DNA of 37,891 nt from Bacillota bacterium. GTDB lineage: Bacteria > Bacillota > Bacilli > Alicyclobacillales > SLC66. Shown here piece after piece: positions 1,289 through 30,285 of this stretch; the first letter of the stretch is position 1, and every line of letters begins with the position of its first letter. The notes beneath the pieces were generated by a model. It ran no database searches, was not told the DNA's origin, and saw nothing but the letters and a program-made list of their open reading frames with translations. A program made the translations under genes and the position numbers. Where the stretch lies: NCBI GenBank assembly GCA_021846285.1, contig JAJZCB010000029.1:1-37891 (forward strand), written 5' to 3'.

Positions 1289-1573
1289 TTAACGATGTTG
1301 CATCATGTATTCTTCATACTTTTCAATCCAAGGACCTGTCTCTTGGAACAACACCGCAAACGCGTGATATGCCGGTGGTTCATGCAAGAACATCTCATTT
1401 TCTTGAAGTTTTTTAGCTACATGTTTTTTCTCCATCAATTTTTCAGCTTCCTGCATGGACAGATGACCGATTTTCATTAACTCTGATCGAACTTCGGCCA
1501 AAAATTGCATCCGAATCGGATCCAAAGGGATTTCAGCTTGTCTGATTACCTTGCGATTCATCAAATTGGACAC
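1289..1573 (-). CDS. Hypothetical protein, 94 aa, overlapping the DUF3990-like gene
   Basis: A 94-residue charged, helical protein that I do not recognise. It starts at GTG (1571-1573) with GAGGGTGA just upstream, and its first 13 bases overlap the end of the DUF3990-like gene, so the two are probably translated together. The middle (residues 24-62) is rich in Lys, Glu and Met and looks alpha-helical; the end carries aromatic residues (WIEKYEEYMM). No signal peptide or membrane segment is present. Genes paired this closely with ADP-ribosyltransferase-like proteins are often antidotes or accessory factors, but that role is only inferred from position. Confidence 0.6.
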   Translation of the reverse strand: MSNLMNRKVIRQAEIPLDPIRMQFLAEVRSELMKIGHLSMQEAEKLMEKKHVAKKLQENEMFLHEPPAYHAFAVLFQETGPWIEKYEEYMMQHR

Positions 1574-2025: not shown

Positions 2026-2034
2026 TCTAATCCC

Positions 2035-2063
2035 AGTATAACAGCGTGCAGACGTGGTGTCGA
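2035..2063 (-). promoter_or_regulatory. Predicted sigma-A promoter of the DUF3990-like gene
   Basis: On the reverse strand TCGACA (2058-2063), a 17-base spacer and TATACT (2035-2040) make a good promoter. Transcription would start near 2028, about 3 bases before the ATG at 2025. Confidence 0.45.
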
Positions 2064-2216
2064 TATGAAATGGAAGAAAAGGAACCCATCGGGTATCTGG
2101 CACGCCGATGAATTTGTGCAGTCGCGCTTCACAACCATTCACTGGTGACGCGTTTCAAATTTATATATTGGTATATGTCACAATGATTCTTTGAGGCCGC
2201 GACGATTGGATCAAGC

Positions 2217-3050: not shown

Positions 3051-3313
3051 GGTTCCACCCCTTATCGTCGTCCATACAGAAAAGTCAGTCAATACTAATT
3101 GTGATTATGACGCTTTAGCTGTGCAGAGGTCAATGTGGTTCTGCAAGAGCGGGCAACTTCATTGAATCCGAAGCAACTTCAGGTGCAAGCGCCATCGAAG
3201 AAACCTCCCAGATTGACAGTGGCGGGCCTGAAAAAGAAACTTCGGACTCTTCGCAGCAGGAACTGGTTTAATTGATCGCGGAATCCTTTGCGTCAAGCAG
3301 ACAGGCACAACAG

Positions 3314-3904: not shown

Positions 3905-5068
3905 TCAATCTTCAAAATCGACTTGCTGTATATACTCTCCAAACAGCGGATGATACAAGGTGTACATACCGCGCCCTTTCCGTATCACCAGATTTTTTTG
4001 TACCAATCGGCTCAATAGACCACTGTTCTGCACATCTTTTGCCGGACAATCACCCGGTGCAGCCGCGGCGATTTGGCGCAAAATCATCCGCTCTCCCGGC
4101 GGAACGGATGACCAATCCACATCAAAACGCTCCGCATAGATCAAACGTAAAATCTCCGGCCACTTGCTTTCACAATACGAAACATCCAAATTGACCCGCC
4201 GTTCACTGTGTGCATTCATCAGCATAACGCGCATGATAAAAGTCACAAAATACGGATGACCGTTTGTTTTACTCTGTATCCAATCCAACGTTTCGTCCGG
4301 TATGGTGATTCCCGCCTGCACTCGCTCCACGGGATATCGTATTGCATCTGCCAAATCTTCGCGATCAAAGGGTTTGAGGTTCATTTTATTAAAAAAACGA
4401 ACGACTGGCTCCGATTCCAAGCGAATATCTTCAAATAGTTCCGAGGGGCCGGTGATCACCAACCCATATCGAGCACCCAGTAAATGTAGATCCTGTATCA
4501 CTGCTCGCAGGATCAGAAATGCCTGTTTGTCCAATGACAAAAGCAGATGCGCATCATCTAATATCAACAAAATCCCACACTCGCGATCAGCCAAAAACCT
4601 TTCCCACAAATCCCTTAATTGACGACGCAGAATATCTGCCGCTCCAGCGGTCGCCATATCTGGACGTTGCCTTTTTGTCACCGTAAGCCCCAACGCGTGA
4701 ATGGATAACTGCCAGTCACGCAATTGTTCCATCGCCTTTTCAGACCACCCTTTGTGTTTGGATAACTCATCCGCGACAAATGAAACCAGCATGGAAAAAA
4801 AACCATAGAGAGAGTCGTATCCCCGGGAACAACTGATGAACACAGGAAAGATATCAAACGGCGCCTGACGGCAACTGTGCATAAATCGATTTGCCAAGCT
4901 GGTTTTGCCAATTCCCCACGGCCCGAGAATCGCGATGTTCCACGGGCCGGAACTTGATGGGTGCAAGCTGGGGATAACCCCCTCTTCAAACCACGCCAGT
5001 TCTCTCTTGCGGTTCGCAAAGTATCGAATGTCAGCCGGATAATTGGGATTGAATGGATTGAGAAACAT
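3905..5068 (-). CDS. AAA family ATPase (AAA_16/Orc-like), orphan
   Basis: 387 residues. A Walker A motif, GPWGIGKTS, lies at residues 49-57 and a Walker B, ILLILDDAHLL, at about 166-176. YGLVITGPSELFEDIR, near 217, fits a sensor-1 strand. A winged-helix-like C-terminus follows (GLLSRLVQKNLVIRKGRGMYTLYHPLFGEYIQ, residues 350-380). This layout is that of AAA_16/Orc1-Cdc6-like STAND-type ATPases, which act as switches in signalling, plasmid or defence contexts. GGAGGG stands 8 bases before the ATG, and a near-consensus promoter lies at 5115-5143. No effector domain is fused and no obvious partner is adjacent, so the function is open. Confidence 0.82.
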   Translation of the reverse strand: MFLNPFNPNYPADIRYFANRKRELAWFEEGVIPSLHPSSSGPWNIAILGPWGIGKTSLANRFMHSCRQAPFDIFPVFISCSRGYDSLYGFFSMLVSFVADELSKHKGWSEKAMEQLRDWQLSIHALGLTVTKRQRPDMATAGAADILRRQLRDLWERFLADRECGILLILDDAHLLLSLDKQAFLILRAVIQDLHLLGARYGLVITGPSELFEDIRLESEPVVRFFNKMNLKPFDREDLADAIRYPVERVQAGITIPDETLDWIQSKTNGHPYFVTFIMRVMLMNAHSERRVNLDVSYCESKWPEILRLIYAERFDVDWSSVPPGERMILRQIAAAAPGDCPAKDVQNSGLLSRLVQKNLVIRKGRGMYTLYHPLFGEYIQQVDFED

Positions 5069-14118: not shown

Positions 14119-15186
14119 CTACGCCACAACCGCCCGCAATTCGTTCAGCACATCCTGCATCCGCAACTCCATGCACGCCATGGAATCATCCGCAGCGCCG
14201 TAGTAGATCCGCAGCCTGTCGTTCACAACAACTGCCCCGCATGAGAACACGACATTGGAAAAAAATCCCGAGGTCTCATACTGTTCTTCCGGAATCAGAA
14301 TCGGACGATCCGTACGCGCCAGCACTGCAGAGGGATCGTGAAGATCCAGAAGAACCGCTCCCAGGCAATATCGATCTCTCTCATCCACGGCATGATAGAT
14401 CTCCAGCCAACCGTCCGGCGTACGAATCGGCACCGCACCGGCCCCAATTCGCTTGCAGTCCCAGAAGTTCCTGCGCAAGCCAAGCAAAAATCGATGGTTC
14501 CCCCAATGAATCAGGTCCCTGGATTCCGCAATCCACATCTCAGGCGCGCCAATCCCGCTTGGCACCGGTCGGTGGATGGCATAGTACCGCCCATTAATCA
14601 TCTCAGGGAACAGGACGACGTCTTTATTTTCGGGAGGAAATATGATCCCGTGTCGGACTGCGCTTGTAAAATCCTGAGTGGATGCCAGACCCACACTGGC
14701 TCCCAGTCTTGAAACGGCCGTGTACGCAATATAGTATTGATCGCCTACCTTTGAACACCGCGGATCCTCAATCCCGTAAGCGTCCAATTCGTTGTGCGGA
14801 AACAGAAAAGCCCTATCCTCAACGGTAAAATGGTGGCCATCCTGGCTTCGCGCCAACCGGAGGTAGGATATGGACGTCAGGAATGACGAAGTGGACGGTT
14901 CGCATCCCCTTATCACACGCGGGTCCGAAAAATCGTAGCGAACATCGTCTGCGTCCAGCCGCACGAACACAACATCGCGGACCGCCGGATCATACACCGG
15001 CGCCACAATCTGGCCTCGCTCTGACACAACGGCGCTCTCCGCGACACGGAGAATCAGAATGATTTCCTCTTCAAACACTGCCGTAGCTGCATTAAACACC
15101 CCCACCACTTCACAACCTGGTATAATCGGCGTTACGTCCTCGGGAGTAATCAGTGGGTTAGCATGGTAACGATCGATTTGAACCAC
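14119..15186 (-). CDS. Glycoside hydrolase family 130 enzyme (mannoside phosphorylase-type)
   Basis: 355 residues forming a five-bladed beta-propeller typical of GH130. Family landmarks are GVFNAATAVFEEEIILILRVAE (residues 29-50), the acid in YGIEDPR (Asp141), VVLFPEMINGRYYAIHRP with the phosphate-binding His-Arg, and DCKRIGAGAVPIRTPDGWLEIYHAVDE. GH130 enzymes mostly phosphorolyse beta-1,2- or beta-1,4-linked mannosides in the cytoplasm; the retained HRP and K-R residues favour a phosphorylase over a hydrolase. Start is GTG behind AAAGGAAG. It is the last gene of a transporter operon, which fits breakdown of imported oligosaccharides. The exact linkage cannot be read. Confidence 0.88.
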   Translation of the reverse strand: MVQIDRYHANPLITPEDVTPIIPGCEVVGVFNAATAVFEEEIILILRVAESAVVSERGQIVAPVYDPAVRDVVFVRLDADDVRYDFSDPRVIRGCEPSTSSFLTSISYLRLARSQDGHHFTVEDRAFLFPHNELDAYGIEDPRCSKVGDQYYIAYTAVSRLGASVGLASTQDFTSAVRHGIIFPPENKDVVLFPEMINGRYYAIHRPVPSGIGAPEMWIAESRDLIHWGNHRFLLGLRRNFWDCKRIGAGAVPIRTPDGWLEIYHAVDERDRYCLGAVLLDLHDPSAVLARTDRPILIPEEQYETSGFFSNVVFSCGAVVVNDRLRIYYGAADDSMACMELRMQDVLNELRAVVA

Positions 15187-15222
15187 GATGTTCTTCCTTT
15201 CAGTACCTCGAATGTGATGGTC

Positions 15223-16713
15223 TCATAGCGACACATGATTCTCGGCTCGTTCTTTGACGTGGAAATCAAGGGGCGCATCACCCGCGTACAGGATGCCGTC
15301 CTTTTCGTAGATGCGTTCCCCGCTCGGCGTCAGCGCCACCACTGCGGTTCCCTGCGCGGGCACAGCCAGCAACGCCTGATGCTGCGCCTCTCGAAGCACG
15401 AAGCGATGCGCTGCAACATCGTACACATCGAATTTCCCCTCGCTGAGGTAGAGCACCGCCTCACGTTCCTCGTCATGAGGATTATAGTAGAGAAATGTAG
15501 GGCAACAGGATGTCGCCAGAAAATCGGTCTTGTTCAAATCGATCTGCAGCACGTACTCGTCTTCCGTAGGACGGATGATTTCCCCCAGCCACAAGCTCAA
15601 GGCGCCGCCGTACACGGATTTATGCCCGTGAAAATCGCCGCAAGCGTAGAGAGCCCGTCCCTGCTCATTCCGACGAATCGATTCATACGGCACAGCCTCG
15701 GTCAGGTCCGGTCGCGACTGATCGTCAGCCGGCAGGCAGTCGGAGAAATACCAGCGCAGGTTTGCGGCCAGATGCAACGCATAGCGACCAATGACTGGCG
15801 CGTACCGAGGATGATATTTCACCAACGGCGCGAGAAAAGGCAACGCGACCATGGACTCCAGACTGTACGCTCTGCTGGCTGCCTCTTCCCGCGTATAGCC
15901 CCGCCAGCCGTATAGCAACCCATTGATCTCCTTGTCGCCCCAGCTACCAGTGTGCAGGCATCCTTCCTGCGGATCCAACGCAAAACGGACAATGCGATCA
16001 AGGTCAATCTCACGATTTTCGAGGCTCCATTTGGAGGCCGCCAGCACCGCCATCGCGCCACTGGGGATTTCATACCAGGGGTTGCTCGAAAACATTTGGT
16101 AGGAAGTGAGCGCGCGCCGTGCCTCGCCGCGGTATTTCTCCTCCCCGAACACTTCAAACGCAGCCGCCATCAGGTAGGCGTATCCGCCGATGGCATCGGG
16201 CTGTCGGTAGGCGTCGTTGCGAGTAAACGGTCGATTGGCCGCAAAGTCATAGCCCTGATCATTAAAGTCGTAGTTCACGGCTTGCCCCAACTCGATCAAC
16301 CGCTCCATAGCGCGGCGGAGACGGGCGACCCCCACCGGATCGTGCAGGAGACAGCGCTTCACGATCTCGCACGCCAGCGCATTGACATACATCAGATACC
16401 AGTATTCGCACAGAGTGTCTCCCGGACCGTTCAAGAACACACCGAACGCCTCGCTATAATAGTCCTCAAGGGACGGAAGCAACGCGCTTACATCCTCCCC
16501 GCGCATGTGCATGCCTACAACAATGGCCCCGTATGTGATCAGCTCACTCCCGAATCCCTCCAAAAATGCGGTGAAGTGCTGTCGACCGCTGTCATTTGTC
16601 CTGAGGACCCCATTGTTCGGATCCATCACAAACTGAATGAATGCATTCGCCCTTTGCCTCAGGTCCAGCGGTTTCTCCTGCGGGCGAACGGGAAACAGGT
16701 TCTCTTCGATCAC
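15223..16713 (-). CDS. Unassigned 496-aa protein, probable intracellular carbohydrate-active enzyme
   Basis: 496 residues without a signal peptide. Residues 20-330 are a run of amphipathic helices with aromatic, Gly-rich turns (NGPGDTLCEYWYLMYVNA, SSNPWYEIPSGAMAVLAAS, DGCLHTGSWGD-like EGCLHTGSWGDKEINGLLYGW), which looks like an (alpha/alpha)6 barrel. Residues 390-490 look like a beta-sandwich (SCCPTFLYYNPHDEEREAVLYLSEG, then VPAQGTAVVALTPSG). That two-domain plan is common in glycosidases and polysaccharide lyases, but I cannot name the family. GTG start behind GAGGAG. It stands between the transporter genes and GH130, 36 bases from the latter, so the two enzymes probably act on the same imported sugar. 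Confidence 0.75.
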   Translation of the reverse strand: MIEENLFPVRPQEKPLDLRQRANAFIQFVMDPNNGVLRTNDSGRQHFTAFLEGFGSELITYGAIVVGMHMRGEDVSALLPSLEDYYSEAFGVFLNGPGDTLCEYWYLMYVNALACEIVKRCLLHDPVGVARLRRAMERLIELGQAVNYDFNDQGYDFAANRPFTRNDAYRQPDAIGGYAYLMAAAFEVFGEEKYRGEARRALTSYQMFSSNPWYEIPSGAMAVLAASKWSLENREIDLDRIVRFALDPQEGCLHTGSWGDKEINGLLYGWRGYTREEAASRAYSLESMVALPFLAPLVKYHPRYAPVIGRYALHLAANLRWYFSDCLPADDQSRPDLTEAVPYESIRRNEQGRALYACGDFHGHKSVYGGALSLWLGEIIRPTEDEYVLQIDLNKTDFLATSCCPTFLYYNPHDEEREAVLYLSEGKFDVYDVAAHRFVLREAQHQALLAVPAQGTAVVALTPSGERIYEKDGILYAGDAPLDFHVKERAENHVSL

Positions 16714-16755
16714 ATTCGCATCTCCTCTGGCTGCCGGCTTATCGATTTCGATATA

Positions 16756-16923
16756 TTACAAACAGACAAACAGACCCAATACCACAAGAATGCTGCTCAG
16801 AGCTATCCCAAGCGTATTCACGACGATACTGGCCTGGTTCAGCCCATACCATCTGGCCAGAAGGGATAGGATGATCAAAAATCCGCCAATTTGCGCCAGC
16901 AATTTCCCGACTTTACGTCGCAT
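16756..16923 (-). CDS. Small two-helix membrane protein, 55 aa
   Basis: MRRKVGKLLAQIGG followed by two hydrophobic stretches (about residues 12-26 and 33-55) joined by a short polar turn. The positively charged N-terminus would stay inside. The ATG at 16921-16923 has GGAG 8 bases upstream and overlaps the end of the OppF-like gene by 11 bases, which indicates translational coupling. An open frame extends further up to 17055, but only by running inside the ATPase gene. I do not recognise the family. Its place at the end of the transporter genes suggests a transporter accessory peptide or a chance small membrane protein. Confidence 0.6.
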   Translation of the reverse strand: MRRKVGKLLAQIGGFLIILSLLARWYGLNQASIVVNTLGIALSSILVVLGLFVCL

Positions 16924-17905
16924 AAGAAGCACTCCGCAAATTAGACGGAATTCTGTCTGGATGGAAACAGGCCGACTTATGTTGGCCATCGAAAGAACGC
17001 AAAGGCGGAGTTTCTTCACGACAATGTTGGTCGGAAAAAGGACATCGTTGAACAAACGGACACCCTTGCGCAGGCATGGCCGTATCGTCCAGGTTTCTTA
17101 ACACGACCGGTGTCCGACTTCTGTTCCATCTGGGGTCTGGAATGGGAACAGCACTTAGTAACGTGTATGTGTAGGGATGAAGCGGTCGTTCAATCAACTC
17201 TGCACAACTACCCTCCTCGACTAAAGCGCCAAAGTACAGTACCCCAATGCGATAGCCTTCAGCAAAGTACCTTACGACTCCAAAATCGTGAGTGATAAAC
17301 AGATAGGAGAGTCCTCTGTCTTCCTTCAATTGCAACAACAGATCGAGAATTGAAACCCGCATTGACACATCCAGCATGCTCACCGCTTCATCGGCGACGA
17401 TGAGTTGGGGCTGTACAACCAATGCACGCGCCACCCCGACTCGCTGGCGCTGACCACCACTTAACTGATGGGGATAGCGATGAAGGAAATCATCCGTAGG
17501 ATCAAGTCCTACAGTCTTGAGAAAGTCTTTCACCCGATCGCGCCTGTCTCTTCGCGAGCAAAGCTTATGACGAATAAGTCCCGCGCTCAAGGTTTCGTAA
17601 ATTGATTGTGTTGGATTAAGCGAGGCATAAGGATCCTGATGCACCAATTGTACGCCGCGTCGATAGTTGTGATAGCCAGAACCCTTGAGTCCACTGATGT
17701 CGCTTCCTTTGAAACTTACAACGCCTTCACTCGGCTTCACAAGGCCCACAGCAATTTTTCCGAGTGTAGTCTTGCCGCAACCACTTTCCCCAACTAAGGC
17801 CAAGATGTCGTTTTGTTCAATGGATACGCTCACATTGTTTAAAACGTTTTGACTCGACTTTTTGTCATAACGATGTCGGATGTGATCTAGGGATAGCAGG
17901 CTCAT
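16913..17905 (-). CDS. Opp/Dpp-type ABC transporter ATP-binding protein (OppF-like)
   Basis: 330 residues. Walker A is GESGCGKTT (39-47), the signature LSGGQRQRVGVARAL lies near 146-160 and the Walker B region is LIVADEAVSMLDVS, where the usual DEPTSALD is replaced by DEAVSMLD. The C-terminal oligopeptide/dipeptide extension is present, with CPFVQRCPFSDQHC and a later Cys that form the Fe-S or metal-binding motif of this subfamily. The ATG overlaps the stop of the OppD-like gene by 4 bases. It powers import together with the OppD-like subunit. Given the GH130 neighbour the cargo is probably an oligosaccharide, as in the Opp-type sugar importers of Thermotoga. Confidence 0.92.
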   Translation of the reverse strand: MSLLSLDHIRHRYDKKSSQNVLNNVSVSIEQNDILALVGESGCGKTTLGKIAVGLVKPSEGVVSFKGSDISGLKGSGYHNYRRGVQLVHQDPYASLNPTQSIYETLSAGLIRHKLCSRRDRRDRVKDFLKTVGLDPTDDFLHRYPHQLSGGQRQRVGVARALVVQPQLIVADEAVSMLDVSMRVSILDLLLQLKEDRGLSYLFITHDFGVVRYFAEGYRIGVLYFGALVEEGSCAELIERPLHPYTYTLLSAVPIPDPRWNRSRTPVVLRNLDDTAMPAQGCPFVQRCPFSDQHCREETPPLRSFDGQHKSACFHPDRIPSNLRSASYAT

Positions 17906-18897
17906 TGCACCATTACCTCCTTAGCTTCCATTCGAGACATGACATGACAACTCACAACATGGCCAGAGCTGTGGACGACGAGTTCAGGTTCACTAACGCG
18001 ACACATCGATTCAGCCAAGTCACACCGGGGAGCGAATCGACAACCGGGTTGAAGCTCCAGTAAATTTGGAACAGATCCTGGTATCGGCCTCGCTCTTACG
18101 GCCTGAAACGCCGATGGCGCTGCATGAAGCAATCCTGTCACATAGGGATGCCTCGCAGGATCGTAGAAAACCTGTTCCAACGTTCCCACATCGACCAGTT
18201 TTCCGGCATACATCACGCCAACACGGTCCGCAATGTCCGCAACCACTCCGAGATCGTGCGTAACAAACACTACCGTTAACCCTAGCCTGGAATGGAGATC
18301 ACGTAAAATGTCCAGCACCAATCGCTGATTCAAAACATCAAGAGCAGTGGTAGGTTCATCAAGGATTAACATAGTGGGTCTTAGCAAGAGGCTGATCGCT
18401 ATCGCCACCCGTTGCTTCATGCCTCCGCTCAATTCATGAGGAAATGACTTCAGAACCTGATCCGGTGACAGCCTCACCAACGTCAATAGTTCACTGAAGT
18501 AGGCATACCCCTCAGACCGTTTGGGCCAAACTTCAGGGTGGGCGTCAAAGATATGATCAACCTGGTTTTTAAAACGCAATACTGGATTGAAACTATTCAT
18601 CGAAGCCTGAAATACCATTGAGATCAATTTCCCTCGCAGGTTGCGGAGTTCCCGATACTTCGCTTGTACAATGTCTATTCCTTGAAACACAATGCCTCCC
18701 GTCTCAAAAAAACCAGGTTCAGGGATTAAATTAAGCAGAGAATAGGCCAATGTGGATTTACCACAACCGCTCTCGCCGACCAAAGCAAATATTTCTCCCG
18801 ATCGCAGACGAAGGGTAACTTGGTCTACTGCGCGGAGCAATCCTCTCGCAGTACGAAACGATACGGTCAGATTCTTGATGTGGATGAAATCCTCCAA
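17902..18897 (-). CDS. Opp/Dpp-type ABC transporter ATP-binding protein (OppD-like)
   Basis: 331 residues. Walker A GESGCGKST is at 41-49, the Q-loop is in SMVFQASMNSFNP, the signature is LSGGMKQRVAIAISLL and Walker B is MLILDEPTTALD, followed by the switch VFVTHDLG. The C-terminal oligopeptide-type tail has CRFAPRCDLAESMC. The start is a TTG (18895-18897) with AAGGAGGATG upstream. It forms the ATPase heterodimer with the OppF-like protein. It is 24 bases downstream of the second permease. Confidence 0.92.
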   Translation of the reverse strand: MEDFIHIKNLTVSFRTARGLLRAVDQVTLRLRSGEIFALVGESGCGKSTLAYSLLNLIPEPGFFETGGIVFQGIDIVQAKYRELRNLRGKLISMVFQASMNSFNPVLRFKNQVDHIFDAHPEVWPKRSEGYAYFSELLTLVRLSPDQVLKSFPHELSGGMKQRVAIAISLLLRPTMLILDEPTTALDVLNQRLVLDILRDLHSRLGLTVVFVTHDLGVVADIADRVGVMYAGKLVDVGTLEQVFYDPARHPYVTGLLHAAPSAFQAVRARPIPGSVPNLLELQPGCRFAPRCDLAESMCRVSEPELVVHSSGHVVSCHVMSRMEAKEVMVQ

Positions 18898-18921
18898 CTT
18901 AAATCATCCTCCTTCACTGGT

Positions 18922-19776
18922 CTATTGCGTACGCAAGCGCGGGTTAAACAGTTGGTCTAGTGCCCTAGTGAACAGGACAAAACCAACTTGCAAGAGGACA
19001 ATCGCTACCATCGGAGAAAAAAGATATAACATGCTTTGACTGGTATAAATTGAACCCGCTTGATTGATCGCAAAGTTCAACATGACACCCCAATTGGAAG
19101 CGGTAAAGGGGGCGATTCCCAACAAGAACAGCCCTACTTCGGCATAAATCGCACCGGAGATGCCCAGCAGGAAATTCATGGCCACATAGGAACCGATGTT
19201 GGGCAATAACTGCCGTATAAGAATATTATACAGAGACAGCCCCTGAACCTGAGCGGCCTCTACAAAGTCGCGTTTGGCCAAAGACAGTGCCTGAGCACGA
19301 ACGGAGCGGGATAAGCCAGCCCACCCGGTAACCGCAATAACAGCCGCAAGAACAAATGGGCTGCTGGACTGGATAAACGTGACGATTACAATAACGAGCG
19401 GCAGCGATGGGATGGTCAGAAATATATCTGCAATGCGCATGAGAATGTTATCGCCGACGCCCCCTAAAAACCCTGCGACCAGTCCAATTATCACGCCGAT
19501 TACCACGGAAAAGGTGGATGCAATCACGGCCACGATAAGTACTGGGGTGGATCCGTCAACAATCTCAGCCAAGGTGTCTCTACCCGCATAATCCGTACCC
19601 AACAAATGTGCCCACGAGGCCGGTTCGTACGCTGCCAACGGATTTTCAATGTTCGAAACGTGTACAAATAACGGTCCAATCGACGCCATCAACAAATAAA
19701 AAACGATAATACCAAATCCTAACATAGCCGATGGATTCCTACGCAATATCCGCCACAGTTCGCGAAAGCCACTCAT
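18922..19776 (-). CDS. Opp/Dpp-type ABC transporter permease (OppC-like)
   Basis: About 284 residues with six predicted membrane helices. It opens with SGFRELWRILRRNPSAMLGFGIIVFYLLMASIGPLF, the usual OppC N-terminus, and contains the HLLGTDYAGRDTLAEIVDGS block. The EAA loop is residues ~180-199 (RDFVEAAQVQGLSLYNILIRQLLPN), which docks onto the ATPases. The ATG at 19774-19776 is preferred over a TTG at 19785 because AAGGAAGGG sits at a more usual distance from it. It follows the OppB-like gene after 28 bases. Confidence 0.9.
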   Translation of the reverse strand: MSGFRELWRILRRNPSAMLGFGIIVFYLLMASIGPLFVHVSNIENPLAAYEPASWAHLLGTDYAGRDTLAEIVDGSTPVLIVAVIASTFSVVIGVIIGLVAGFLGGVGDNILMRIADIFLTIPSLPLVIVIVTFIQSSSPFVLAAVIAVTGWAGLSRSVRAQALSLAKRDFVEAAQVQGLSLYNILIRQLLPNIGSYVAMNFLLGISGAIYAEVGLFLLGIAPFTASNWGVMLNFAINQAGSIYTSQSMLYLFSPMVAIVLLQVGFVLFTRALDQLFNPRLRTQ

Positions 19777-19804
19777 ATGCCTCAATCCCTTCCTTGTATC
19801 TCGC

Positions 19805-20794
19805 CTATTTTTGCATAGTGCGCGGATCTAGACGTTGATTTATCAGGTCTGTCAAGAAATTCGCAAGGACCACCGCCGATGTTACGATAATAAAGGCGCC
19901 CATCATGAGGGGATAATCCCTTCCATTCACGGCTGTAATGAGGAAGAAACCGATACCAGGATAGTTAAACAGAGTTTCGATGAAAACCGACCCGCCCACC
20001 ATGAACCCAATGGATAGTCCCAGCGATGTGACGAGGGGGAGAATGGCATTTCGCCCAACATAGGACTGGATGATACGCCTGCTCCCAATGCCGTGGGAAT
20101 GGGCCGATGTGATATATTCCTCCCCTAGAGCACTGACCACGCTGCTCTTCATACCGAGCGACCACCCTCCGACCTGAGTGATGATAAATACGATCACGGG
20201 TAGTGCAGCATGCCGGGCTACACTAAATAGAAAGGGAATATTCCATCCGGGTGCCACTTCTGGTGAATAAGCACCGCCAGTCGGAAAGATATGATGAATG
20301 TCAGCAAGCAAATAGAGCAGAATAATAGCCACGATATAATTGGGTATGGCGCTCAGCACTGTCATAATGGTGGAAACAAGCACAGCAAATTTGGATTTTC
20401 GAAAATATGCGATAAGAGTTCCGATAGAAATGCCGATAAAAAAACTGATGATCAGTGAGGTAGACACGATCAAAATCGTCCAAGGCAAGGCGTTCATCAA
20501 AATGTGCAGAACAGACGTACCTGGATATAGGATAGAATTACCCAAACTTCCGTGAATCATATTCCAAATGTACTGGACATATTGGAGAAGGAGAGGCTCC
20601 TTCATGTTGACACCGTACAGTGACTGTACCTGTTGAAGAGCTTGCTGCGGTGAAACAGTATGTGACGCCAATAGTTGAAAGTATAGGAAATCCACTGCAT
20701 TGCCGGGCATCAGTCGAATTAGGAAGAAGCTAATCGTGATCACCACGTAAATGATAAACAGCGAAACGCCAAACCGTCTGGCGATATAGGCCAT
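19805..20794 (-). CDS. Opp/Dpp-type ABC transporter permease (OppB-like)
   Basis: 329 residues starting MAYIARRFGVSLFIIYVVITISFFLIRLMPGNAV, the typical OppB/DppB beginning. Six helices follow, with the EAA loop EYITSAHSHGIGSRRIIQSYVGRNAILPLVTSLG and the end motif FNYPGIGFFLITAVNGRDYPLMMGAFII. The ATG at 20792-20794 has GGGAGGAC upstream; a longer frame to 20827 lacks such a site. It partners the OppC-like permease to form the translocation channel. A stable hairpin (20857-20884) lies between it and the binding-protein gene. Confidence 0.92.
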   Translation of the reverse strand: MAYIARRFGVSLFIIYVVITISFFLIRLMPGNAVDFLYFQLLASHTVSPQQALQQVQSLYGVNMKEPLLLQYVQYIWNMIHGSLGNSILYPGTSVLHILMNALPWTILIVSTSLIISFFIGISIGTLIAYFRKSKFAVLVSTIMTVLSAIPNYIVAIILLYLLADIHHIFPTGGAYSPEVAPGWNIPFLFSVARHAALPVIVFIITQVGGWSLGMKSSVVSALGEEYITSAHSHGIGSRRIIQSYVGRNAILPLVTSLGLSIGFMVGGSVFIETLFNYPGIGFFLITAVNGRDYPLMMGAFIIVTSAVVLANFLTDLINQRLDPRTMQK

Positions 20795-20856
20795 TGTTTC
20801 GTCCTCCCAAACTACATCTGCCCTCAAATCATCCGCGTTGTTTAAAACGCCTCGAT

Positions 20857-20884
20857 GCGGGCGTAACCTTCAGGCAACACCCGC
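20857..20884 (-). promoter_or_regulatory. Intercistronic hairpin between binding protein and permease genes
   Basis: Arms 20857-20869 and 20872-20884 pair over 13 positions (reverse strand GCGGGTGTTGCCT / AGGTTACGCCCGC, one mismatch, two G-U) around a 2-base loop. No U-run follows directly. Such hairpins commonly protect the binding-protein mRNA and lower expression of downstream permeases. Confidence 0.5.
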
Positions 20885-20914
20885 ACCACTCTTGGCTGAT
20901 GACTGGCGGGAATC

Positions 20915-22660
20915 TTACTTGGCGTGAATATACCCCGACATCAGCATCAAAGCCAATCCGCCATTTGCATTACCACCCAACTGCTGCCACAAATAACTAG
21001 TGGGGGCCGGCCAACCCACATAAGTCTGCGTGGAGTAGAAGACCTGCATTCTCTTGTCGGCGTAGGGGAGAAACGGAAGCTGCTCATTGACGAGTTTCGC
21101 GTATGCAATGGCTGCAGCTTCGATCGCCGTCGGCGAAGTCAATGATTGATCTGTTTTCAAGTTAGTGGCAAGATTCACGTGCCCGACACCCGGCAACGTT
21201 ACGTTAGGACCAAATCCAAGTCCATAGTACCCGGGTTGGCCAGGCGTATAGTTTTCGTTGACCAGTACGGCCGCAAAAGCATTGATGGGATTCATATGCC
21301 ACCAGCTTCCCCAGCCCCAGGAGATATCGTACTGGCCCTTGTTCTGTTGAACCCAATACCCCGGTTGCTCGATAGCGCTGGCGCTTGACTTGATGCCAAA
21401 GTTCGTCAGCTCTGAGGCTAACTCTTCACCACTTAACTCCTGACCGTTGTACCCTGCGGGAGTGATGATAGACAAAGTAAACGGCTTACCATTTGGCATG
21501 ATCCAGCCATTTGCCGTCTTTTTGAAGTGTAGGCCCACCAATAGACGCGCTGCTTTGGCTAGATTGTATGCATACTGATGAAATCCTTGCAGGGCGCTCT
21601 GCGGAATCCACTGGTTTTGCACTCCAAATTGCAACCCAGTGATGGTGGTGACGGGATGGTTTTTCATGAACCCGTTCCCAATTTCCGTAATCAGATTACG
21701 ATTGATGGCATAGGCCAGAGCTTGACGTACACCTGGGATCGTAAACGGATACCGTCTTGAATTAAAGTACCACGTCTCTTGCGACCAGTCCCATGGCAGA
21801 TTCACATGATGTGCCGGGTTGGATAACCAAGCGGTCTGAACGGTCTTAGGTGATCCCGTCCAGGAAAAGTCCGTTTTTCCAGCAGCCATATCCGCCCAAC
21901 CGGTCGAATTGTTGGCCACATTATAGGCGACGATCTGCGAAACATGAACCGAAGAGGCCTTAAAAAATCCCGCAAATTTATTGAGATCCGCCTGATTGCT
22001 GGTCATAGCGGTTAACTGGAATGGACCATTACCCACGTATGACGTCGGATTAAATTTCAAAATCTCACTTTTAACCGCCGTCAAAATTTTCGTGTTATTG
22101 TCCAGATTGGCCTTTAAGAGATTGGGCACTACAAAGCGTCCGTATTGACCGGAAGAAACGAGAGATTGCACCAGGATATCATGCAGGATCTGCGGAGCAA
22201 TGGCGCCTTTGGTCAGTTCAAAGACAACCTGATGAGCATTTGGAGCGTACATGTTGGCAATATTCCACATCACGCCCCAGCCCATTGTCTGGTCAAGCAG
22301 GAATGTATCGATCACGTCTTTGCTACTTACCAATTGTCCATCTTGCCATTTTACACCTTGGCGCAGATTGATTGTAATTTTGCTCGGTGTCATCGTCCAG
22401 GATGCCGCCAATTCCGGAACATACTGATCACCTGGGTGCAACTGGTATGCGAGCGGCAAATTGGTTAGAGTCGAGAAATTCATAAAATCCGGTGCATACA
22501 TGTTGTAGGACCAAGCCGGATTCCATCCCTCATTCAACTGAAAAGGGGCGGTACTTGCCGCCACGGGTTTGATCGCCGCAGCCGCTGAGGAAACACCAAA
22601 CAGAAGTGGAAGTGAACTGAGAACTGCTGCAAACGAAAGCAGTGATTTTGACTTTTTCAT
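20915..22660 (-). CDS. Extracellular solute-binding protein family 5 (Opp/Dpp type)
   Basis: About 581 residues. A secretory signal (MKKSKSLLSFAAVLSSLPLLFGVSSAAAA) is followed by the family-5 pattern: ASWTMTPSKITINLRQGVKWQDGQLVSSKDVIDTF (near 105-140), GNGPFQLTAMTSNQ, YPFTIPGVRQALAYAINRN and KAARLLVGLHF. It captures the transporter's ligand outside the cell. No cysteine is present at the end of the signal, so there is no visible lipobox, which is unusual for a Gram-positive binding protein. The ATG at 22658-22660 has AAAGGGG upstream; the frame extends to 22774 without another good site. First gene of the operon, from the promoter at 22837-22865. Confidence 0.9.
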   Translation of the reverse strand: MKKSKSLLSFAAVLSSLPLLFGVSSAAAAIKPVAASTAPFQLNEGWNPAWSYNMYAPDFMNFSTLTNLPLAYQLHPGDQYVPELAASWTMTPSKITINLRQGVKWQDGQLVSSKDVIDTFLLDQTMGWGVMWNIANMYAPNAHQVVFELTKGAIAPQILHDILVQSLVSSGQYGRFVVPNLLKANLDNNTKILTAVKSEILKFNPTSYVGNGPFQLTAMTSNQADLNKFAGFFKASSVHVSQIVAYNVANNSTGWADMAAGKTDFSWTGSPKTVQTAWLSNPAHHVNLPWDWSQETWYFNSRRYPFTIPGVRQALAYAINRNLITEIGNGFMKNHPVTTITGLQFGVQNQWIPQSALQGFHQYAYNLAKAARLLVGLHFKKTANGWIMPNGKPFTLSIITPAGYNGQELSGEELASELTNFGIKSSASAIEQPGYWVQQNKGQYDISWGWGSWWHMNPINAFAAVLVNENYTPGQPGYYGLGFGPNVTLPGVGHVNLATNLKTDQSLTSPTAIEAAAIAYAKLVNEQLPFLPYADKRMQVFYSTQTYVGWPAPTSYLWQQLGGNANGGLALMLMSGYIHAK

Positions 22661-22836
22661 TTGTAGGATTCGCCCCTTTTTGGTAGTTACATAGACCACA
22701 ATCGAAACATCACGCCTTGACCAGCTCTTCTCAACAACCGCCGAAATCGGGTTAAGCGCTTCCATACCCATCACCGAGACCCCCAGGCATACACCCCTTA
22801 GAAACTAGTCGAAAAATTTCTTTCAGTCTGTACATA

Positions 22837-22865
22837 AGTATATGGTTGATAAATTATGCTGTCAA
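22837..22865 (-). promoter_or_regulatory. Strong sigma-A promoter of the binding protein-transporter-GH130 operon
   Basis: Reverse strand TTGACA (22860-22865), 17-base spacer, TATACT (22837-22842). The spacer contains ATCAACC, which is also found in the DUF1861 promoter spacer and is a candidate operator for the ROK regulator encoded just upstream. The leader to the ATG is about 170 bases. Confidence 0.7.
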
Positions 22866-22873
22866 CAGTTTTT

Positions 22874-24040
22874 CTAGCCAATGAGTTGAGTATGGTCGTA
22901 CACATGTTGAAGCACCAGCGCAGCCGCCCCGATGGCCACAGCGCTGATGCCAAAGCTTGTAGGGATGACGTCCACCCCGCTGTTGTAGCAAAGCTTTCGG
23001 ACCCGCTCCTGGATCTCCCGAACCATATACTCTGCAGAAAGAAGGGTTCGTCCGCCTAAAATCACTATGTCGGGATTGAATATCTGCATGAAATTAAAAA
23101 TGCCGACGCTAAGATATGAGAGCCCTCGATCGACCACTTCGCGTTCCGGACTCCTGCCTTCAATTGCTTGCTGAATGATCGTGAGTATGTTCTCCCCCTG
23201 CTCGACGTGACGCGCCTCGCGAACGGCGGCCATCATCGCATACGCGGACGCCGCCGTATTGACACACCCTCTCCGTCCACAGCTGCAAATTGCCCCATTC
23301 ATATCGACGATGGTGTGACTGAATTCGCCAGCCTGGTTTTTCGCGCCGCAATAGATCGAACGATGAATAGCCATGCCCGCGCCCACGCCCGCATCCGCGA
23401 GCACAAACAGGATATGGTGAAAGTCGTTTCCCAGCCCAAACCACGTCTCTCCCAGCGCCGCCGCGTCAGCGTCATTGGCCAAAAAAGCCGGTATACCGAG
23501 TTGACTCTGGAAGAGTTCCACGAGTTGCACCTCGTGCCACTGCACACCGATATCGTCGGTCGCAAGCAACTGCCCCTTTACCGGGTCGAGCGGTCCCGGC
23601 GCCGCAACGCCGACACCGATTACGGCAGCCAGGTCGAGTCCGGAACGAACGATAAAACGACCGACAAATTCGACCAGTTGACTGGCATTCGTAAGGGTGG
23701 CGACTTCAATCTCTTCCTCATGAATGACCTCACATAGTAAATTCACGCATACGAAACGAGCGTAGACCCGCCCCAGTTCAATCCCGATCGCCCCCGCCGC
23801 GTGCGCGCGAATCTGCAAGAGTATGGCGGGACGACCACCGGTTGAATCGTCCGGGCCTAGCTCTTCCAGCCACCCCTTTTGCAGCAACGTGTCCACAATG
23901 CGCATCACCGTTGGCGTAGCAATGCGAATCTCTCGACCCAAATTGGATCGCGAGATTTTCTTGTGCAGTCTAACCGTGTTGAGAATTCTTCTTTCGTTCA
24001 ACTGACGCAACAAAGGGGATCGAGTTTCCAGTTCGGACAT
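22874..24040 (-). CDS. ROK family transcriptional regulator
   Basis: 388 residues. A winged helix-turn-helix (about residues 10-75: LNERRILNTVRLHKKISRSNLGREIRIATPTVMRIVDTLLQKGWL) precedes a sugar-kinase-like ROK domain with GVGVAAPGPLD, LANDADAAALGE, GVGAGMAI, the EFSHTIVD histidine and the zinc motif CSCGRRGC (near residue 260). This is the XylR/NagC type that binds a sugar or sugar phosphate and releases DNA. It lies 23 bases after the DUF1861 gene and directly before the transporter promoter, so it is probably the local repressor. Confidence 0.92.
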   Translation of the reverse strand: MSELETRSPLLRQLNERRILNTVRLHKKISRSNLGREIRIATPTVMRIVDTLLQKGWLEELGPDDSTGGRPAILLQIRAHAAGAIGIELGRVYARFVCVNLLCEVIHEEEIEVATLTNASQLVEFVGRFIVRSGLDLAAVIGVGVAAPGPLDPVKGQLLATDDIGVQWHEVQLVELFQSQLGIPAFLANDADAAALGETWFGLGNDFHHILFVLADAGVGAGMAIHRSIYCGAKNQAGEFSHTIVDMNGAICSCGRRGCVNTAASAYAMMAAVREARHVEQGENILTIIQQAIEGRSPEREVVDRGLSYLSVGIFNFMQIFNPDIVILGGRTLLSAEYMVREIQERVRKLCYNSGVDVIPTSFGISAVAIGAAALVLQHVYDHTQLIG

Positions 24041-24063
24041 AGGAGCACCTGTCTTTCAGCGGA

Positions 24064-25011
24064 TTAGTCTTCATAGTCCAAAAAGGGATCGTGAATGCGC
24101 AGTTTGTACGCCTCACAGTCATTGACCCCTGCGTAAAGATCCGCACGACCGTCGCCCCAGCGCACCAATCCTCCTGGAAAGATGACATCCCGCAGGTCGG
24201 GCCGCTTATAGTTTTGCACATTGATGAAGCTGCTGCTTGCAGCAATGACCTTGATAGAGGTTGCATGTTCTGTAGTTGAATCCCATACAAATGACATCGC
24301 ATAATAGTGTCGCAGATGGTCCTCGGTGAAATGCGCAATGTGCCCCAAAATGCCAATTCTGCCATTGCGAAGAACATGCAGTTCATTGACTCCGCCCCAT
24401 TCTTCAGGAAGGAAACGACGCGGAATCTTCTTCGCTTGCACAATTACACTCGGCGTCAGATCATCCAAACAATCAATGACTGCAAACCCAATCTCCGCCT
24501 TGCCGCCAAAACCCCTGCCTTTCGGCCTTGTAAAGACACCGATGCGCTTGTCCGTCAGTTCCACCAGCCGGATGTCTTTCATCCCTTGCAGCCCAACAGC
24601 ACACAAGCGCAGATCGCGAATGTTTTTCCCGCGATAAAACAGCGTTCGAAACTCGAGCTTGTGCGGGTCAGTAAACCGTCTCCAGATCTCCACGCCGCCA
24701 AACACCAATTCTCCCTGAATGACGGCAACGAACGGATCCTGTAACAAGGGAAACCGTCTCGTTCCCGTTCGGGGGAACCACACCCCGCCGCGTTGTACAA
24801 AGAATACCACCTCAGAATCCTCGCTGTCACGCGCCTCCACCCTGCCCGCAATGACAGTGTCGCCTTCATCCATGAACGGAGCCGAGATATTATAAACATC
24901 CTTGCCTTCTACACCCGCAAAGTTGATCCGTTCCCCACCCTGCTCCCATCGATGAGCAGCAAACTCGGCAAACAAATCCCCAGCGCTTCGGGCTTCCGAA
25001 GCAGGTTTCAT
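24064..25011 (-). CDS. DUF1861 family protein (beta-propeller, GH130-like)
   Basis: About 315 residues. Motifs of DUF1861 are clear: FAGVEGKDVYNISAPF, IAGRVEARDSEDSEV, LQDPFVAVIQGELVFGGVEI, GMKDIRLVELTDKRIGVFTRP, PEEWGGVNELHVL, GHIAHF, RPDLRDVIFPGGLVR and HDPFLDYED. The family is a five-bladed propeller resembling GH43/GH130 enzymes, but its activity is not established to my knowledge. The ATG at 25009-25011 has AGGG upstream. An ATG at 25060-25062 is also possible but would be within a few bases of the transcription start. It forms an operon with the ROK gene. Confidence 0.85.
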   Translation of the reverse strand: MKPASEARSAGDLFAEFAAHRWEQGGERINFAGVEGKDVYNISAPFMDEGDTVIAGRVEARDSEDSEVVFFVQRGGVWFPRTGTRRFPLLQDPFVAVIQGELVFGGVEIWRRFTDPHKLEFRTLFYRGKNIRDLRLCAVGLQGMKDIRLVELTDKRIGVFTRPKGRGFGGKAEIGFAVIDCLDDLTPSVIVQAKKIPRRFLPEEWGGVNELHVLRNGRIGILGHIAHFTEDHLRHYYAMSFVWDSTTEHATSIKVIAASSSFINVQNYKRPDLRDVIFPGGLVRWGDGRADLYAGVNDCEAYKLRIHDPFLDYED

Positions 25012-25072: not shown

Positions 25073-25100
25073 AGTATATACTCGGTTGATTGTATGTCAA
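25073..25100 (-). promoter_or_regulatory. Strong sigma-A promoter of the DUF1861-ROK operon
   Basis: Reverse strand TTGACA (25095-25100), 16-base spacer, TATACT (25073-25078). The -35 lies in a small inverted repeat (GATTG-ACATA-CAATC), the -10 in the palindrome AGTATATACT, and the spacer carries ATCAACC, shared with the transporter promoter. Confidence 0.7.
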
Positions 25101-26809: not shown

Positions 26810-26871
26810 CTGCTATCCAAAATGTACGCAAAAGTGCGCAGCATTCTGTTCCTGCCCCGAAGCCCCTTGAA
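26810..26871 (-). repeat. IS607 element right end (copy 1), likely omega-RNA 3' region
   Basis: Sixty-two bases matching 30224-30285 at 57 positions. It covers the last codons of tnpB, including its TAG, and ends GGATAGCAG. In TnpB systems the guide RNA scaffold comes from this end and the guide is the flanking DNA, here AATAATCAATTTGGAACATG (26790-26809, reverse strand). Confidence 0.65.
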
Positions 26872-28156
26872 GGCCCGCTTCGTATCTGACAGGCGTGACT
26901 TTCCCGCCATTTGCCGGTCTTGCTCTGACACCGGCGCCTGTATCCGACGTTGCCGTCTGATTCGCCACGGGTAGCGCAGATGGTTCATTGGCAAAGCCAA
27001 TCGAACAGGTTGCGAGCCTCTTGAGATTCTGCGCCGCATTCACGTCACGATCATGATTCGTGCCGCACTGCGGGCAGTTCCACTCGCGAATGGACAACGG
27101 AAGCTCCGGCAGGATGTACCCACAGCATGAGCACCGTTTGGAGGATGGGAAAAAGCGATCGGCCATCACCACTGTCGTGCCGTATAACACGGATTTGTAC
27201 TCCAATTGCCGACGTATCTCGCCGAATCCGACATCGGATAGGGCCAGCGCCAATCGGTGATTCTTGATCATTCCTTGCACGCACAGGTCCTCGATGCCGA
27301 TGGCTTGGTTTTTGCGCACCAGCCGTGTTGTCAACTTGTGCGTGAAGTCGGAACGGATATTCGCGATGCGGGCGTGGAGTCTTGCCAAGGCCGCCGCATC
27401 TTGTCGCCGGTTGTTTGATACGGACAGTTTTGCGCCTTTGGGAATTTCGCCTTCTATCTTTGCCTTTCGCTTTGCCGCTTCCAGCTTCCGACTCAGTCGT
27501 CGTTGCCGAATTCTAAAGCGACGCAGCGCTTTCTTCAGTGGCCTGGGGGAGTCGATCCCTTCGCCCGTAGAGAGAACCACGGCGGTCTTCACGCCGAGAT
27601 CTACACCCTCCACATGATGTGAAATCCGCTTTCTCTTCGCCGCTCCCTTCGGTACATCCACCTGAATCGACACAAACCACCGATCGGCTGTCCGCGACAC
27701 CGTCGCACTCAGAATCTTCCCCGTAAATCGCAGCGATTCCGTCATGTCCACCCAACCGATTTTGGGTAACTGGATGCGTGCTCCCTTCACGACAAACTTG
27801 TCATTGGCCACATAGAACGAATCCAGGCACTGGCCTTTCTTCTTGAACTGAGGCTTGTGCACGTTCTTGCCCGCCAACATGTCCGAGAAGAACTGCTTGG
27901 CCGTTTTGCCGAGGTTGGCGAAGGGCTGCGCATGGGCGTCTCGATGCACCCCTTTCATCCATGGAAAGGCTTCATACTTGATCGCGTTGAACCGCTTCTT
28001 CAATTGCGACCATGTGGGCGCATGACCCGCCTCGAAGTCCTCTGTCCAATGCGCCACCGCCCAATTCCGTGTGAACCTGGCGCATCCGGCCGCCTGACGA
28101 AAATACGCCTCCTGCGGAGCGGTCGGACGAAGCTGGATCTTGTGCGCCAGTTCCAT
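26813..28156 (-). CDS. tnpB: RNA-guided endonuclease TnpB (IS607/IS605 OrfB family)
   Basis: 447 residues. The RuvC-like nuclease residues are all present: Asp186 in VEGVDLGVKT, Glu289 in AIGIEDL and the HDRDVNAAQN motif (Asp369/Asp371). The zinc ribbon has Cys342, Cys345, Cys361 and Cys364. The N-terminal helix-turn-helix-like segment (PTAPQEAYFRQAAGCARFTRNWAVAHW) is typical. TnpB is a DNA nuclease guided by an RNA from the element's own right end and helps keep the element in place. AGGAGG lies 8 bases before the ATG. The last 70 residues form an extended tail whose coding sequence doubles as the element's right end. Confidence 0.95.
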   Translation of the reverse strand: MELAHKIQLRPTAPQEAYFRQAAGCARFTRNWAVAHWTEDFEAGHAPTWSQLKKRFNAIKYEAFPWMKGVHRDAHAQPFANLGKTAKQFFSDMLAGKNVHKPQFKKKGQCLDSFYVANDKFVVKGARIQLPKIGWVDMTESLRFTGKILSATVSRTADRWFVSIQVDVPKGAAKRKRISHHVEGVDLGVKTAVVLSTGEGIDSPRPLKKALRRFRIRQRRLSRKLEAAKRKAKIEGEIPKGAKLSVSNNRRQDAAALARLHARIANIRSDFTHKLTTRLVRKNQAIGIEDLCVQGMIKNHRLALALSDVGFGEIRRQLEYKSVLYGTTVVMADRFFPSSKRCSCCGYILPELPLSIREWNCPQCGTNHDRDVNAAQNLKRLATCSIGFANEPSALPVANQTATSDTGAGVRARPANGGKVTPVRYEAGLQGASGQEQNAAHFCVHFG

Positions 28157-28229
28157 TCACCGCATCCTCCTTTTGTGCTTCATCGAGCTTGTTTCAGATC
28201 GGGATGCTTGTGAAAAGGGTCTTGATATC

Positions 28230-28258
28230 AGTATATCGAACATGAGTTCTGATTACAA
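28230..28258 (-). promoter_or_regulatory. Predicted promoter of tnpB
   Basis: Reverse strand TTGTAA (28253-28258), 17-base spacer, TATACT (28230-28235), between the tnpA remnant and tnpB. It would give tnpB its own transcript with a leader of about 65 bases. Confidence 0.5.
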
Positions 28259-28282
28259 TACCAAGCTGTGCGAAAGAGATAG

Positions 28283-28501
28283 TCACAGGGCGTCATGTCC
28301 AAACCACCCGAAGCCAAGGCGCGTGAGCCGATCCTTCCCGCGACGCTGGTTCTGCGAATCGAGCCTTTGCGCCGCGCTGGATATACGACAATAGGCGAGC
28401 TGTCTGGTTGCAATCTCGGACGCGTCGTCCTCTTGATCCCGCCGTTGCATCGTCTTGACCGCCACGTCCAGCATCTTTGCTGCCCTGCTCATGCCAAACA
28501 C
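28283..28501 (-). pseudogene. tnpA: IS607 TnpA serine recombinase, internally deleted
   Basis: Seventy-two residues that join three pieces of an IS607 transposase. The MerR-like helix-turn-helix start is MSRAAKMLDVAVKTMQRRDQE. The resolvase strand follows as RQLAYCRISSAAQRLDSQNQR, with the catalytic Ser in RISS. The later GKDRLTRLGFGWF corresponds to HKDRLVRFGFEWF. A normal TnpA has about 200 residues: the segments between the helix-turn-helix and the resolvase strand, and between QNQR and KDRL, are missing, and the protein ends just after. The reading frame survives the deletions, but the protein cannot be an active recombinase. Confidence 0.8.
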
Positions 28502-28741
28502 TATGATGCATCATTGGGTATCTATTTTATGACCGGGGTCTAGCTCCATCAAATCCAACTATCCTCTTTCGCCATTGATCCAAGTCACTGATTGAAGTCT
28601 CACACTTCGAACACCCGCAACCGCTGCTCTTCCGTACGATTCCGCTGCCATCATGGGGTGCCACGTGGTGTTTGTCTCGAACTAATTTCCTCCTGCTTTC
28701 GTAATATGTCCTATCGCACAATACGAAGGGAGGTTAGACTC

Positions 28742-30223: not shown

Positions 30224-30285
30224 TTCAAGAGGCTTCGGGGCAGGAACAGAATGATGTGCACTCTTGCGTGCATTTTGGATAGCAG
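30224..30285 (+). mobile_element. Solo IS607 right-end remnant (copy 2)
   Basis: Matches 26810-26871 (reverse complement) at 57 of 62 bases and encodes the same TnpB tail (ASGQEQN ... CVHFG, stop). The rest of tnpB is absent. The junction with the S41 fragment is direct. The bases after the end (GGTGACAACGGTTTCTCTTG) differ from those of copy 1, as expected for an independent insertion. Confidence 0.8.

What the first reader, a model, noticed from the sequence alone, without database searches (positions are those of the whole stretch)
14119..25011. Oligosaccharide uptake and phosphorolysis locus with an unassigned enzyme and DUF1861
Nine codirectional genes read as one system: DUF1861, ROK regulator, binding protein, two permeases, two ATPases, a 55-residue membrane protein, a 496-residue unassigned protein and GH130. 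GH130 enzymes act on beta-mannosides inside the cell, and Opp-type importers for manno- and cello-oligosaccharides are known in Thermotoga. DUF1861 is a GH130-like propeller without an established activity to my knowledge. The combination suggests a complete pathway with two steps still unnamed.
Basis: partly seen in the sequence, partly recalled or inferred. Interest (0 to 1): 0.6.

Follow-up and report, generated by a model that had tools for sequence, protein, structure and literature searches.

The report
Beta-1,2-mannoside import and phosphorolysis operon
A bacterial operon that probably imports short beta-1,2-linked mannose sugars and splits them with phosphate; it carries a widespread enzyme family that has no name yet, and its sugar importer was exchanged, in this species, for one of a different class.

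Summary
The gene set is real, at the stated coordinates, on the minus strand (ten genes, not nine). The likely substrates are beta-1,2-mannosides, not beta-1,4. GH130 is closest to the beta-1,2-mannobiose phosphorylase Lin0857 and keeps the beta-1,2 lysine and phosphorylase-type basic residues. DUF1861 does have a known activity in its family: it belongs with Leishmania GT108 beta-1,2-mannosyltransferase/phosphorylases (35% identity, fold Z about 40, catalytic Asp kept) and accompanies GH130 in 10 of 20 other Bacilli loci. The 496-residue protein (P496) is an unnamed (alpha/alpha)6-barrel family found in three phyla; GH130 or DUF1861 lies within 10 kb in 69 of 79 loci, and secreted versions carry glycan-binding modules. 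It is probably a glycosidase of the same glycan; its bond is unknown. Unexpectedly, two congeneric genomes have a CUT1 sugar importer where this one has an Opp-type importer. The old binding protein is gone except for its signal peptide, which now starts the new one. No activity was measured. It is a new variant of the known Thermoanaerobacter/Listeria type of beta-1,2-mannoside phosphorolysis.

The parts
24064..25011 (-). DUF1861 protein, GT108-like (315 aa from ATG 25011); predicted beta-1,2-mannoside phosphorylase
   Evidence: PF08950 365.7 bits; Leishmania MPT-4 E=1.8e-45; model pLDDT 80, Z 38-40 to MPT entries against 20-26.5 for GH130; catalytic Asp D92 (MPT-2 D94)
25073..25100 (-). sigma-70 promoter TTGACA-16-TATACT before DUF1861
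   Evidence: conserved in G002
22874..24040 (-). ROK-family transcriptional regulator (388 aa)
   Evidence: PF00480 170.8 bits with N-terminal wHTH hits; 98% and 87% identical in G001 and G002
22837..22865 (-). sigma-70 promoter TTGACA-17-TATACT before the importer genes
   Evidence: same promoter before the CUT1 importer in G001 and G002
22752..22764 (-). conserved TGGAAGCGCTTAA, cre- or operator-like
   Evidence: upstream of the importer in window, G001 and G002 only among fetched loci; function inferred
20915..22660 (-). SBP_bac_5 binding protein (581 aa) with the signal peptide of the former CUT1 binding protein
   Evidence: residues 1-51 match the CUT1 SBP of G001 (57%), the rest does not
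19805..20794 (-). OppB-type permease
18922..19785 (-). OppC-type permease
17902..18897 (-). OppD-type ATPase
16913..17905 (-). OppF-type ATPase
16756..16923 (-). 55-aa membrane ORF, start overlapping the OppF stop; doubtful gene
   Evidence: no family match, not found in relatives
16743..22660 (-). exchanged importer cassette (SBP5-OppBCDF-55aa), GC 0.487
   Evidence: flanks 95-96% identical to G001, inside not homologous; CUT1 SBP absent from this genome; GC and GC3 shift
15223..16713 (-). P496: unnamed (alpha/alpha)6-barrel plus beta-sandwich enzyme
14119..15186 (-). GH130, predicted beta-1,2-mannobiose phosphorylase
   Evidence: Lin0857 E=3.7e-114; NF050092 525 bits, cut-off 550; D141, K188, H205/R206, R246

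Best explanation
The operon takes up and breaks down short beta-1,2-mannosides. The ABC importer (binding protein, two permeases, two ATPases) brings an oligosaccharide in. P496 cleaves it inside the cell, most likely as a glycoside hydrolase acting on the beta-1,2-mannan chain or on the bond that joins it to another sugar. DUF1861, a bacterial GT108, then removes mannose from longer chains with phosphate, and GH130 splits the final beta-1,2-mannobiose, giving alpha-mannose 1-phosphate and mannose without spending ATP. The ROK repressor controls both promoters. In this species the importer is an exchange: an Opp-class cassette replaced the CUT1 importer of its relatives, behind the old promoter and with the old signal peptide. 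Shown by sequence: gene set, promoters, family relations, catalytic residues, co-occurrence, importer exchange. Inferred: substrate, order of steps, repressor role. Not shown: any activity, and which bond P496 cuts.
For: GH130 is nearest to Lin0857 (E=3.7e-114). It keeps K188, equivalent by counting to BT3780 Lys199, the beta-1,2 determinant of PMC4599007, and has H205/R206 and R246 where the hydrolase has Glu227 and Glu268. DUF1861 aligns at 35% to Leishmania MPT enzymes, with Z about 40 against 20-26.5 for GH130, and keeps the catalytic Asp. DUF1861 lies in 10 of 20 other GH130 loci of Bacilli, mostly next to GH130. Relatives carry in the same loci a second GH130 of the BT3780 beta-1,2-mannosidase type and a GH2 beta-mannosidase-like protein. 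P496 has GH130 or DUF1861 within 10 kb in 69 of 79 loci from three phyla, and secreted forms with LamG, F5/8-type-C, SLH or type IX sorting modules. Two congeneric genomes have a CUT1 sugar importer in the slot. A five-component ABC importer with two beta-1,2-mannoside phosphorylases is described in Thermoanaerobacter (PMC4264767).
Against: No activity or ligand was measured. GH130 scores 25 bits under the NCBIfam cut-off for beta-1,2-mannobiose phosphorylase. P496 is absent from G002 and from most Bacilli with this GH130 (at most 7 of 399 genomes have P496, 53 have the GH130), so it is not a core step. GH13 alpha-glucosidases recur near P496, so the natural glycan may not be a pure beta-1,2-mannan. 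DUF1861 is broken in G001. The NCBIfam models nearest to the binding protein are nickel and peptide binders.
Confidence: 0.68

Rival explanations
1. P496 does not cut beta-1,2-mannan itself but an alpha bond (alpha-mannosyl or alpha-glucosyl) of a mixed glycan that carries beta-1,2-mannose; GH130 and DUF1861 then use the freed beta-mannosides.
For: The best structural neighbours are GH76 endo-alpha-1,6-mannanases (Z 20.4-23.1); GH13 alpha-glucosidases recur at P496 loci; BT3780-type beta-1,2-mannosidases are known from alpha-mannan loci (PMC4599007).
Against: Identity to GH76 is 7-12% and many unrelated (alpha/alpha)6 enzymes score Z 19-20; GH76 is not among the Pfam families matched by 53 members.
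Confidence: 0.3
2. P496 is a sugar epimerase or isomerase acting before GH130, as cellobiose 2-epimerase does in the beta-1,4-mannan pathway of Bacteroides.
For: Same barrel class (cellobiose 2-epimerases Z 19-19.5) and a similar neighbourhood (GH130-MFS-P496 in Bacteroidota).
Against: No conserved histidine column in 53 sequences, whereas the invariant acids are E215, E344 and D360; secreted forms with glycan-binding modules; no epimerase Pfam hit.
Confidence: 0.08
3. The Opp cassette is unrelated to sugars (peptide importer inserted by chance), or the junction is an assembly artefact of the MAG.
For: Cassette absent from two sister genomes; lower GC; draft genome in 164 contigs.
Against: It replaces exactly the sugar importer behind its promoter; the join lies in a signal-peptide region of 77% identity to both sisters, not at a shared identical stretch; the old CUT1 binding protein is missing from the whole genome; the best solved relatives include chitin- and mannoside-binding SBP5 proteins.
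Confidence: 0.13
4. The operon works mainly in the synthetic direction, making a beta-1,2-mannan reserve like Leishmania mannogen.
For: Leishmania members of the DUF1861 family include GDP-mannose transferases, and phosphorylases are reversible.
Against: No GDP-mannose gene in the operon; an importer is part of it; other family members sit in uptake loci with SusCD or CUT1 importers.
Confidence: 0.08

Closest known systems
Thermoanaerobacter sp. X-514 cluster Teth514_1785-1796 (PMC4264767)
   Same: Binding protein, two permeases and two ATPases next to beta-1,2-mannoside phosphorylases; proposed import then phosphorolysis.
   Different: That cluster has two GH130 enzymes, a GH5 and GDP-mannose genes; here there is one GH130, a GT108-like DUF1861, P496 and a ROK regulator.
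Lin0857 of Listeria innocua, beta-1,2-mannobiose phosphorylase (5B0P)
   Same: Nearest solved relative of the GH130 (E=3.7e-114).
   Different: Clearly diverged in sequence; the neighbourhood of Lin0857 was not examined here.
Leishmania MPT enzymes, CAZy GT108 (6Q4X, 6Q50)
   Same: Same Pfam family, fold and catalytic Asp as the DUF1861 protein.
   Different: Bacterial, in an uptake operon; mannosyl donor (mannose 1-phosphate or GDP-mannose) untested.
Bacteroides cellobiose 2-epimerase-MFS-GH130 pathway for beta-1,4-mannan (own knowledge)
   Same: An (alpha/alpha)6 enzyme, a transporter and a GH130 together.
   Different: P496 has no epimerase family match and no conserved histidine; the GH130 is of the beta-1,2 type.
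GH76 endo-alpha-1,6-mannanases
   Same: Best structural neighbours of P496 (Z up to 23.1).
   Different: 7-12% identity, extra C-terminal beta-sandwich, no family hit.

Membership tests
GH130 (beta-1,2-mannobiose phosphorylase type) | GH130 profile match above cut-off | tested here: met
   191.8 bits, cut-off 26
GH130 (beta-1,2-mannobiose phosphorylase type) | invariant catalytic Asp | tested here: met
   D141 in GIEDPR, aligned with Lin0857; BT3780 Asp142 per PMC4599007
GH130 (beta-1,2-mannobiose phosphorylase type) | beta-1,2 specificity lysine (BT3780 Lys199) | tested here: met
   K188, by counting on printed alignments
GH130 (beta-1,2-mannobiose phosphorylase type) | basic residues instead of hydrolase Glu227/Glu268 | tested here: met
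   H205/R206 and R246
GH130 (beta-1,2-mannobiose phosphorylase type) | NCBIfam equivalog cut-off of NF050092 | tested here: not met
   525 bits, cut-off 550; so the exact equivalog name is not claimed
GT108 (DUF1861) | sequence and fold of Leishmania MPT enzymes | tested here: met
   E=1.8e-45; Z 38-40 over 281-299 residues
GT108 (DUF1861) | catalytic Asp (MPT-2 D94) | tested here: met
   D92, invariant in 7 bacterial sequences
GT108 (DUF1861) | transferase or phosphorylase activity on beta-1,2-mannan | not testable with these tools
   needs an enzyme assay
Opp/PepT-class ABC importer | SBP5, two permeases, two ATPases with oligo_HPY | tested here: met
Opp/PepT-class ABC importer | sugar rather than peptide ligand | tested here: inconclusive
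   solved relatives include sugar binders, NCBIfam neighbours do not
AGE / cellobiose 2-epimerase (for P496) | conserved catalytic histidines | tested here: not met
   no column with 70% His among 53 members
AGE / cellobiose 2-epimerase (for P496) | family profile match | tested here: not met
   not among the Pfam families matched by members
GH76 (for P496) | family profile match | tested here: not met
   not among the Pfam families matched
GH76 (for P496) | barrel fold | tested here: inconclusive
   Z up to 23.1, but many (alpha/alpha)6 families reach 19-20

The most novel reading that the evidence does not exclude
P496 is the founding member of a new glycosidase family, an endo- or exo-acting beta-1,2-mannan hydrolase, that runs with GH130 and GT108 phosphorylases across three phyla; in Bacteroidota one copy is secreted to cut the polymer and a second, cytoplasmic copy finishes the imported pieces.
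Probability: 0.35. Interest if true: 0.75.

Novelty: new variant of a known kind. Interest (0 to 1): 0.52.

Why it matters
Beta-1,2-mannans are reserve or surface sugars of Leishmania and Candida, and the environmental bacteria that eat such glycans are poorly known. The locus links an unnamed enzyme family with at least 381 encoded relatives to that chemistry, gives bacterial DUF1861 proteins a testable role, and documents an importer of one class replacing another inside an operon while the promoter and signal peptide stayed.

Tried and rejected
Pfam, NCBIfam and PDB sequence searches of P496 alone, and a PDB search with its 53-sequence profile, gave nothing credible; weak C5-epim_C hits in 24 of 53 members (best E 1.3e-4) fit only the barrel class. 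Paper searches for DUF1861, endo-acting beta-1,2-mannanases, lmo0862-lmo0864 and mannoside synthase found no description of P496. The Sernee 2019 paper is not held, so GT108 facts come from the review PMC8950772. A formal cre pattern search missed the conserved TGGAAGCGCTTAA. Mutual exclusion of DUF1861 and the second GH130 in Bacilli loci was seen, but the loci are few and related. Model coordinates are not released, so pocket distances could not be measured.
Full report
Observation. The genes lie on the minus strand from 25011 to 14119 (translations). Order: DUF1861, ROK, SBP_bac_5, OppB, OppC, OppD, OppF, a 55-aa membrane ORF, P496, GH130. Pfam confirms all named families far above cut-off; the 55-aa ORF and P496 match nothing, and NCBIfam adds no name for P496. 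Two promoters of the form TTGACA-16/17-TATACT stand before DUF1861 and before the binding protein; both are conserved in sister genome G002 and the second in G001. The two promoter regions also share elements around the -10 box, which would suit one repressor for both, presumably the ROK protein (inference). The ATG at 25011 is the most likely DUF1861 start because the promoter ends at 25073.

GH130. The nearest solved protein is Lin0857, beta-1,2-mannobiose phosphorylase (E=3.7e-114), then Uhgb_MS and Teth514_1789. PMC4599007 names Lys199 of BT3780 as the beta-1,2 determinant and Glu227/Glu268 as candidates for the hydrolase base. Counting along the printed alignments, the window GH130 has K188 at the lysine, H205/R206 and R246 at the two glutamates, and D141 as catalytic Asp. 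This predicts a phosphorylase of beta-1,2-mannosides. It falls 25 bits below the NCBIfam equivalog cut-off. It is the only GH130 found in the genome.

DUF1861. Leishmania members are dual glycosyltransferase-phosphorylases of mannogen, a beta-1,2-mannan, CAZy GT108 (PMC8950772). Solved Leishmania MPT proteins match with E of 1e-45 to 1e-41. The predicted model (pLDDT 80, four sequences) matches MPT-1, -2 and -4 at Z 38-40 and GH130 at 20-26.5. The catalytic Asp (D94 of MPT-2) is D92. Among 20 other Bacilli loci fetched around close GH130 relatives, DUF1861 lies in 10, mostly next to GH130. Whether the bacterial protein uses phosphate or GDP-mannose is untested.

P496. It is a real protein family. 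GH130 lies within about 10 kb in 66 of the 79 loci kept, DUF1861 in 3 more; of the 10 without either, several are cut by contig ends. In Bacilli close relatives of this GH130 occur 61 times in 399 genomes, so chance would give well under one in 79. The loci include many related Bacteroidota, so they are not 79 independent events, but the link holds in three phyla and in two separate loci of genome G360. In Bacteroidota the usual order is SusC-SusD-GH130-MFS-P496, often with a GH13. Other forms are secreted: signal peptide, LamG and type IX sorting domain, or giant SLH-anchored proteins with F5/8-type-C modules; an Acidobacteria copy begins with a Tat-like signal. RefSeq-derived plasmid records call it hypothetical. 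The model (pLDDT 94.3) is an (alpha/alpha)6 barrel with a C-terminal beta-sandwich; the best neighbours are GH76 (Z 23.1, 7% identity) among many barrel enzymes. Invariant in 53 sequences are W105, Y106, Y214, E215, W258, G265, E344, G359, D360, Y368, N411; no histidine is conserved. This fits a glycosidase and speaks against an epimerase of the AGE type. The bond it cuts is not known.

Importer exchange. In congeneric G001 and G002 the operon reads DUF1861-ROK-SBP_bac_1-permease-permease-(P496)-GH130; in G001 it is split over two contigs. Flanks are 95-96% identical to G001, but 16743-22660 is unrelated. The CUT1 binding protein (93% between sisters) is absent from the window genome (next best 27%), except that residues 1-51 match at 22505-22660, the signal peptide of the new binding protein. 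The Opp genes are absent from the sisters apart from permease paralogues of at most 44%, and the binding protein has no match in them. The cassette has GC 0.487 (genome sample 0.552; 1.6% of windows as low) and GC3 0.46-0.57, against 0.65-0.71 for the native importer genes measured. Other relatives also have CUT1 importers. The simplest reading is replacement of the importer class with the promoter and signal peptide kept. Because the new importer fills the slot of a sugar importer, and because a five-component importer is described with beta-1,2-mannoside phosphorylases in Thermoanaerobacter (PMC4264767), sugar import is likely, though unmeasured. Assembly error is unlikely since the join lies in a region only 77% identical to the sisters, but long reads are needed. 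P496 is absent in G002 and DUF1861 is broken in G001, so parts of the set are dispensable.

Verdict. A new variant of a known kind of pathway, with one unnamed enzyme family of wide spread and an unusual importer exchange.

Noticed in passing
window 26812-28543: A 1,732-base TnpB-type (IS605 OrfB / Cas12f1-like) element sits here; sister genome G001 has an empty site joining 26811 to 28544.
   Followed up: partly
window 26810-26871 and 30224-30285: 62-nt inverted repeat, 92% complementary: a second copy of the element's end lies 3.4 kb away near the Fic-domain gene.
   Followed up: no
window 22594-22660: The lipobox cysteine of the binding protein (LLAGC in G002) is lost in the window (LLFGV) and in G001 (LLAGY), so membrane anchoring is unclear.
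   Followed up: no
L181 3029-3769 (G001:C119): The DUF1861 gene of sister genome G001 is broken into pieces while the ROK gene beside it is intact (98% identical).
   Followed up: partly
L135-L137 (G360): One Bacilli genome has several P496 domains, some in SLH-anchored secreted proteins of 2061 and 2541 residues with glycan-binding modules.
   Followed up: partly
L027-L029: Termite-gut Firmicutes have P496 with DUF1861 and CUT1-type permeases but no GH130 within 10 kb.
   Followed up: no
L026 2-3862: A second Bacillota P496-GH130 locus has Opp-type permease and ATPase genes (36-40% identical to the window's) next to it, besides CUT1-type genes.
   Followed up: no
window 1561-2142: DUF3990 protein, near a squalene-hopene-cyclase-like repeat protein (2217-3092) and an AAA ATPase (3905-5068).
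   Followed up: no
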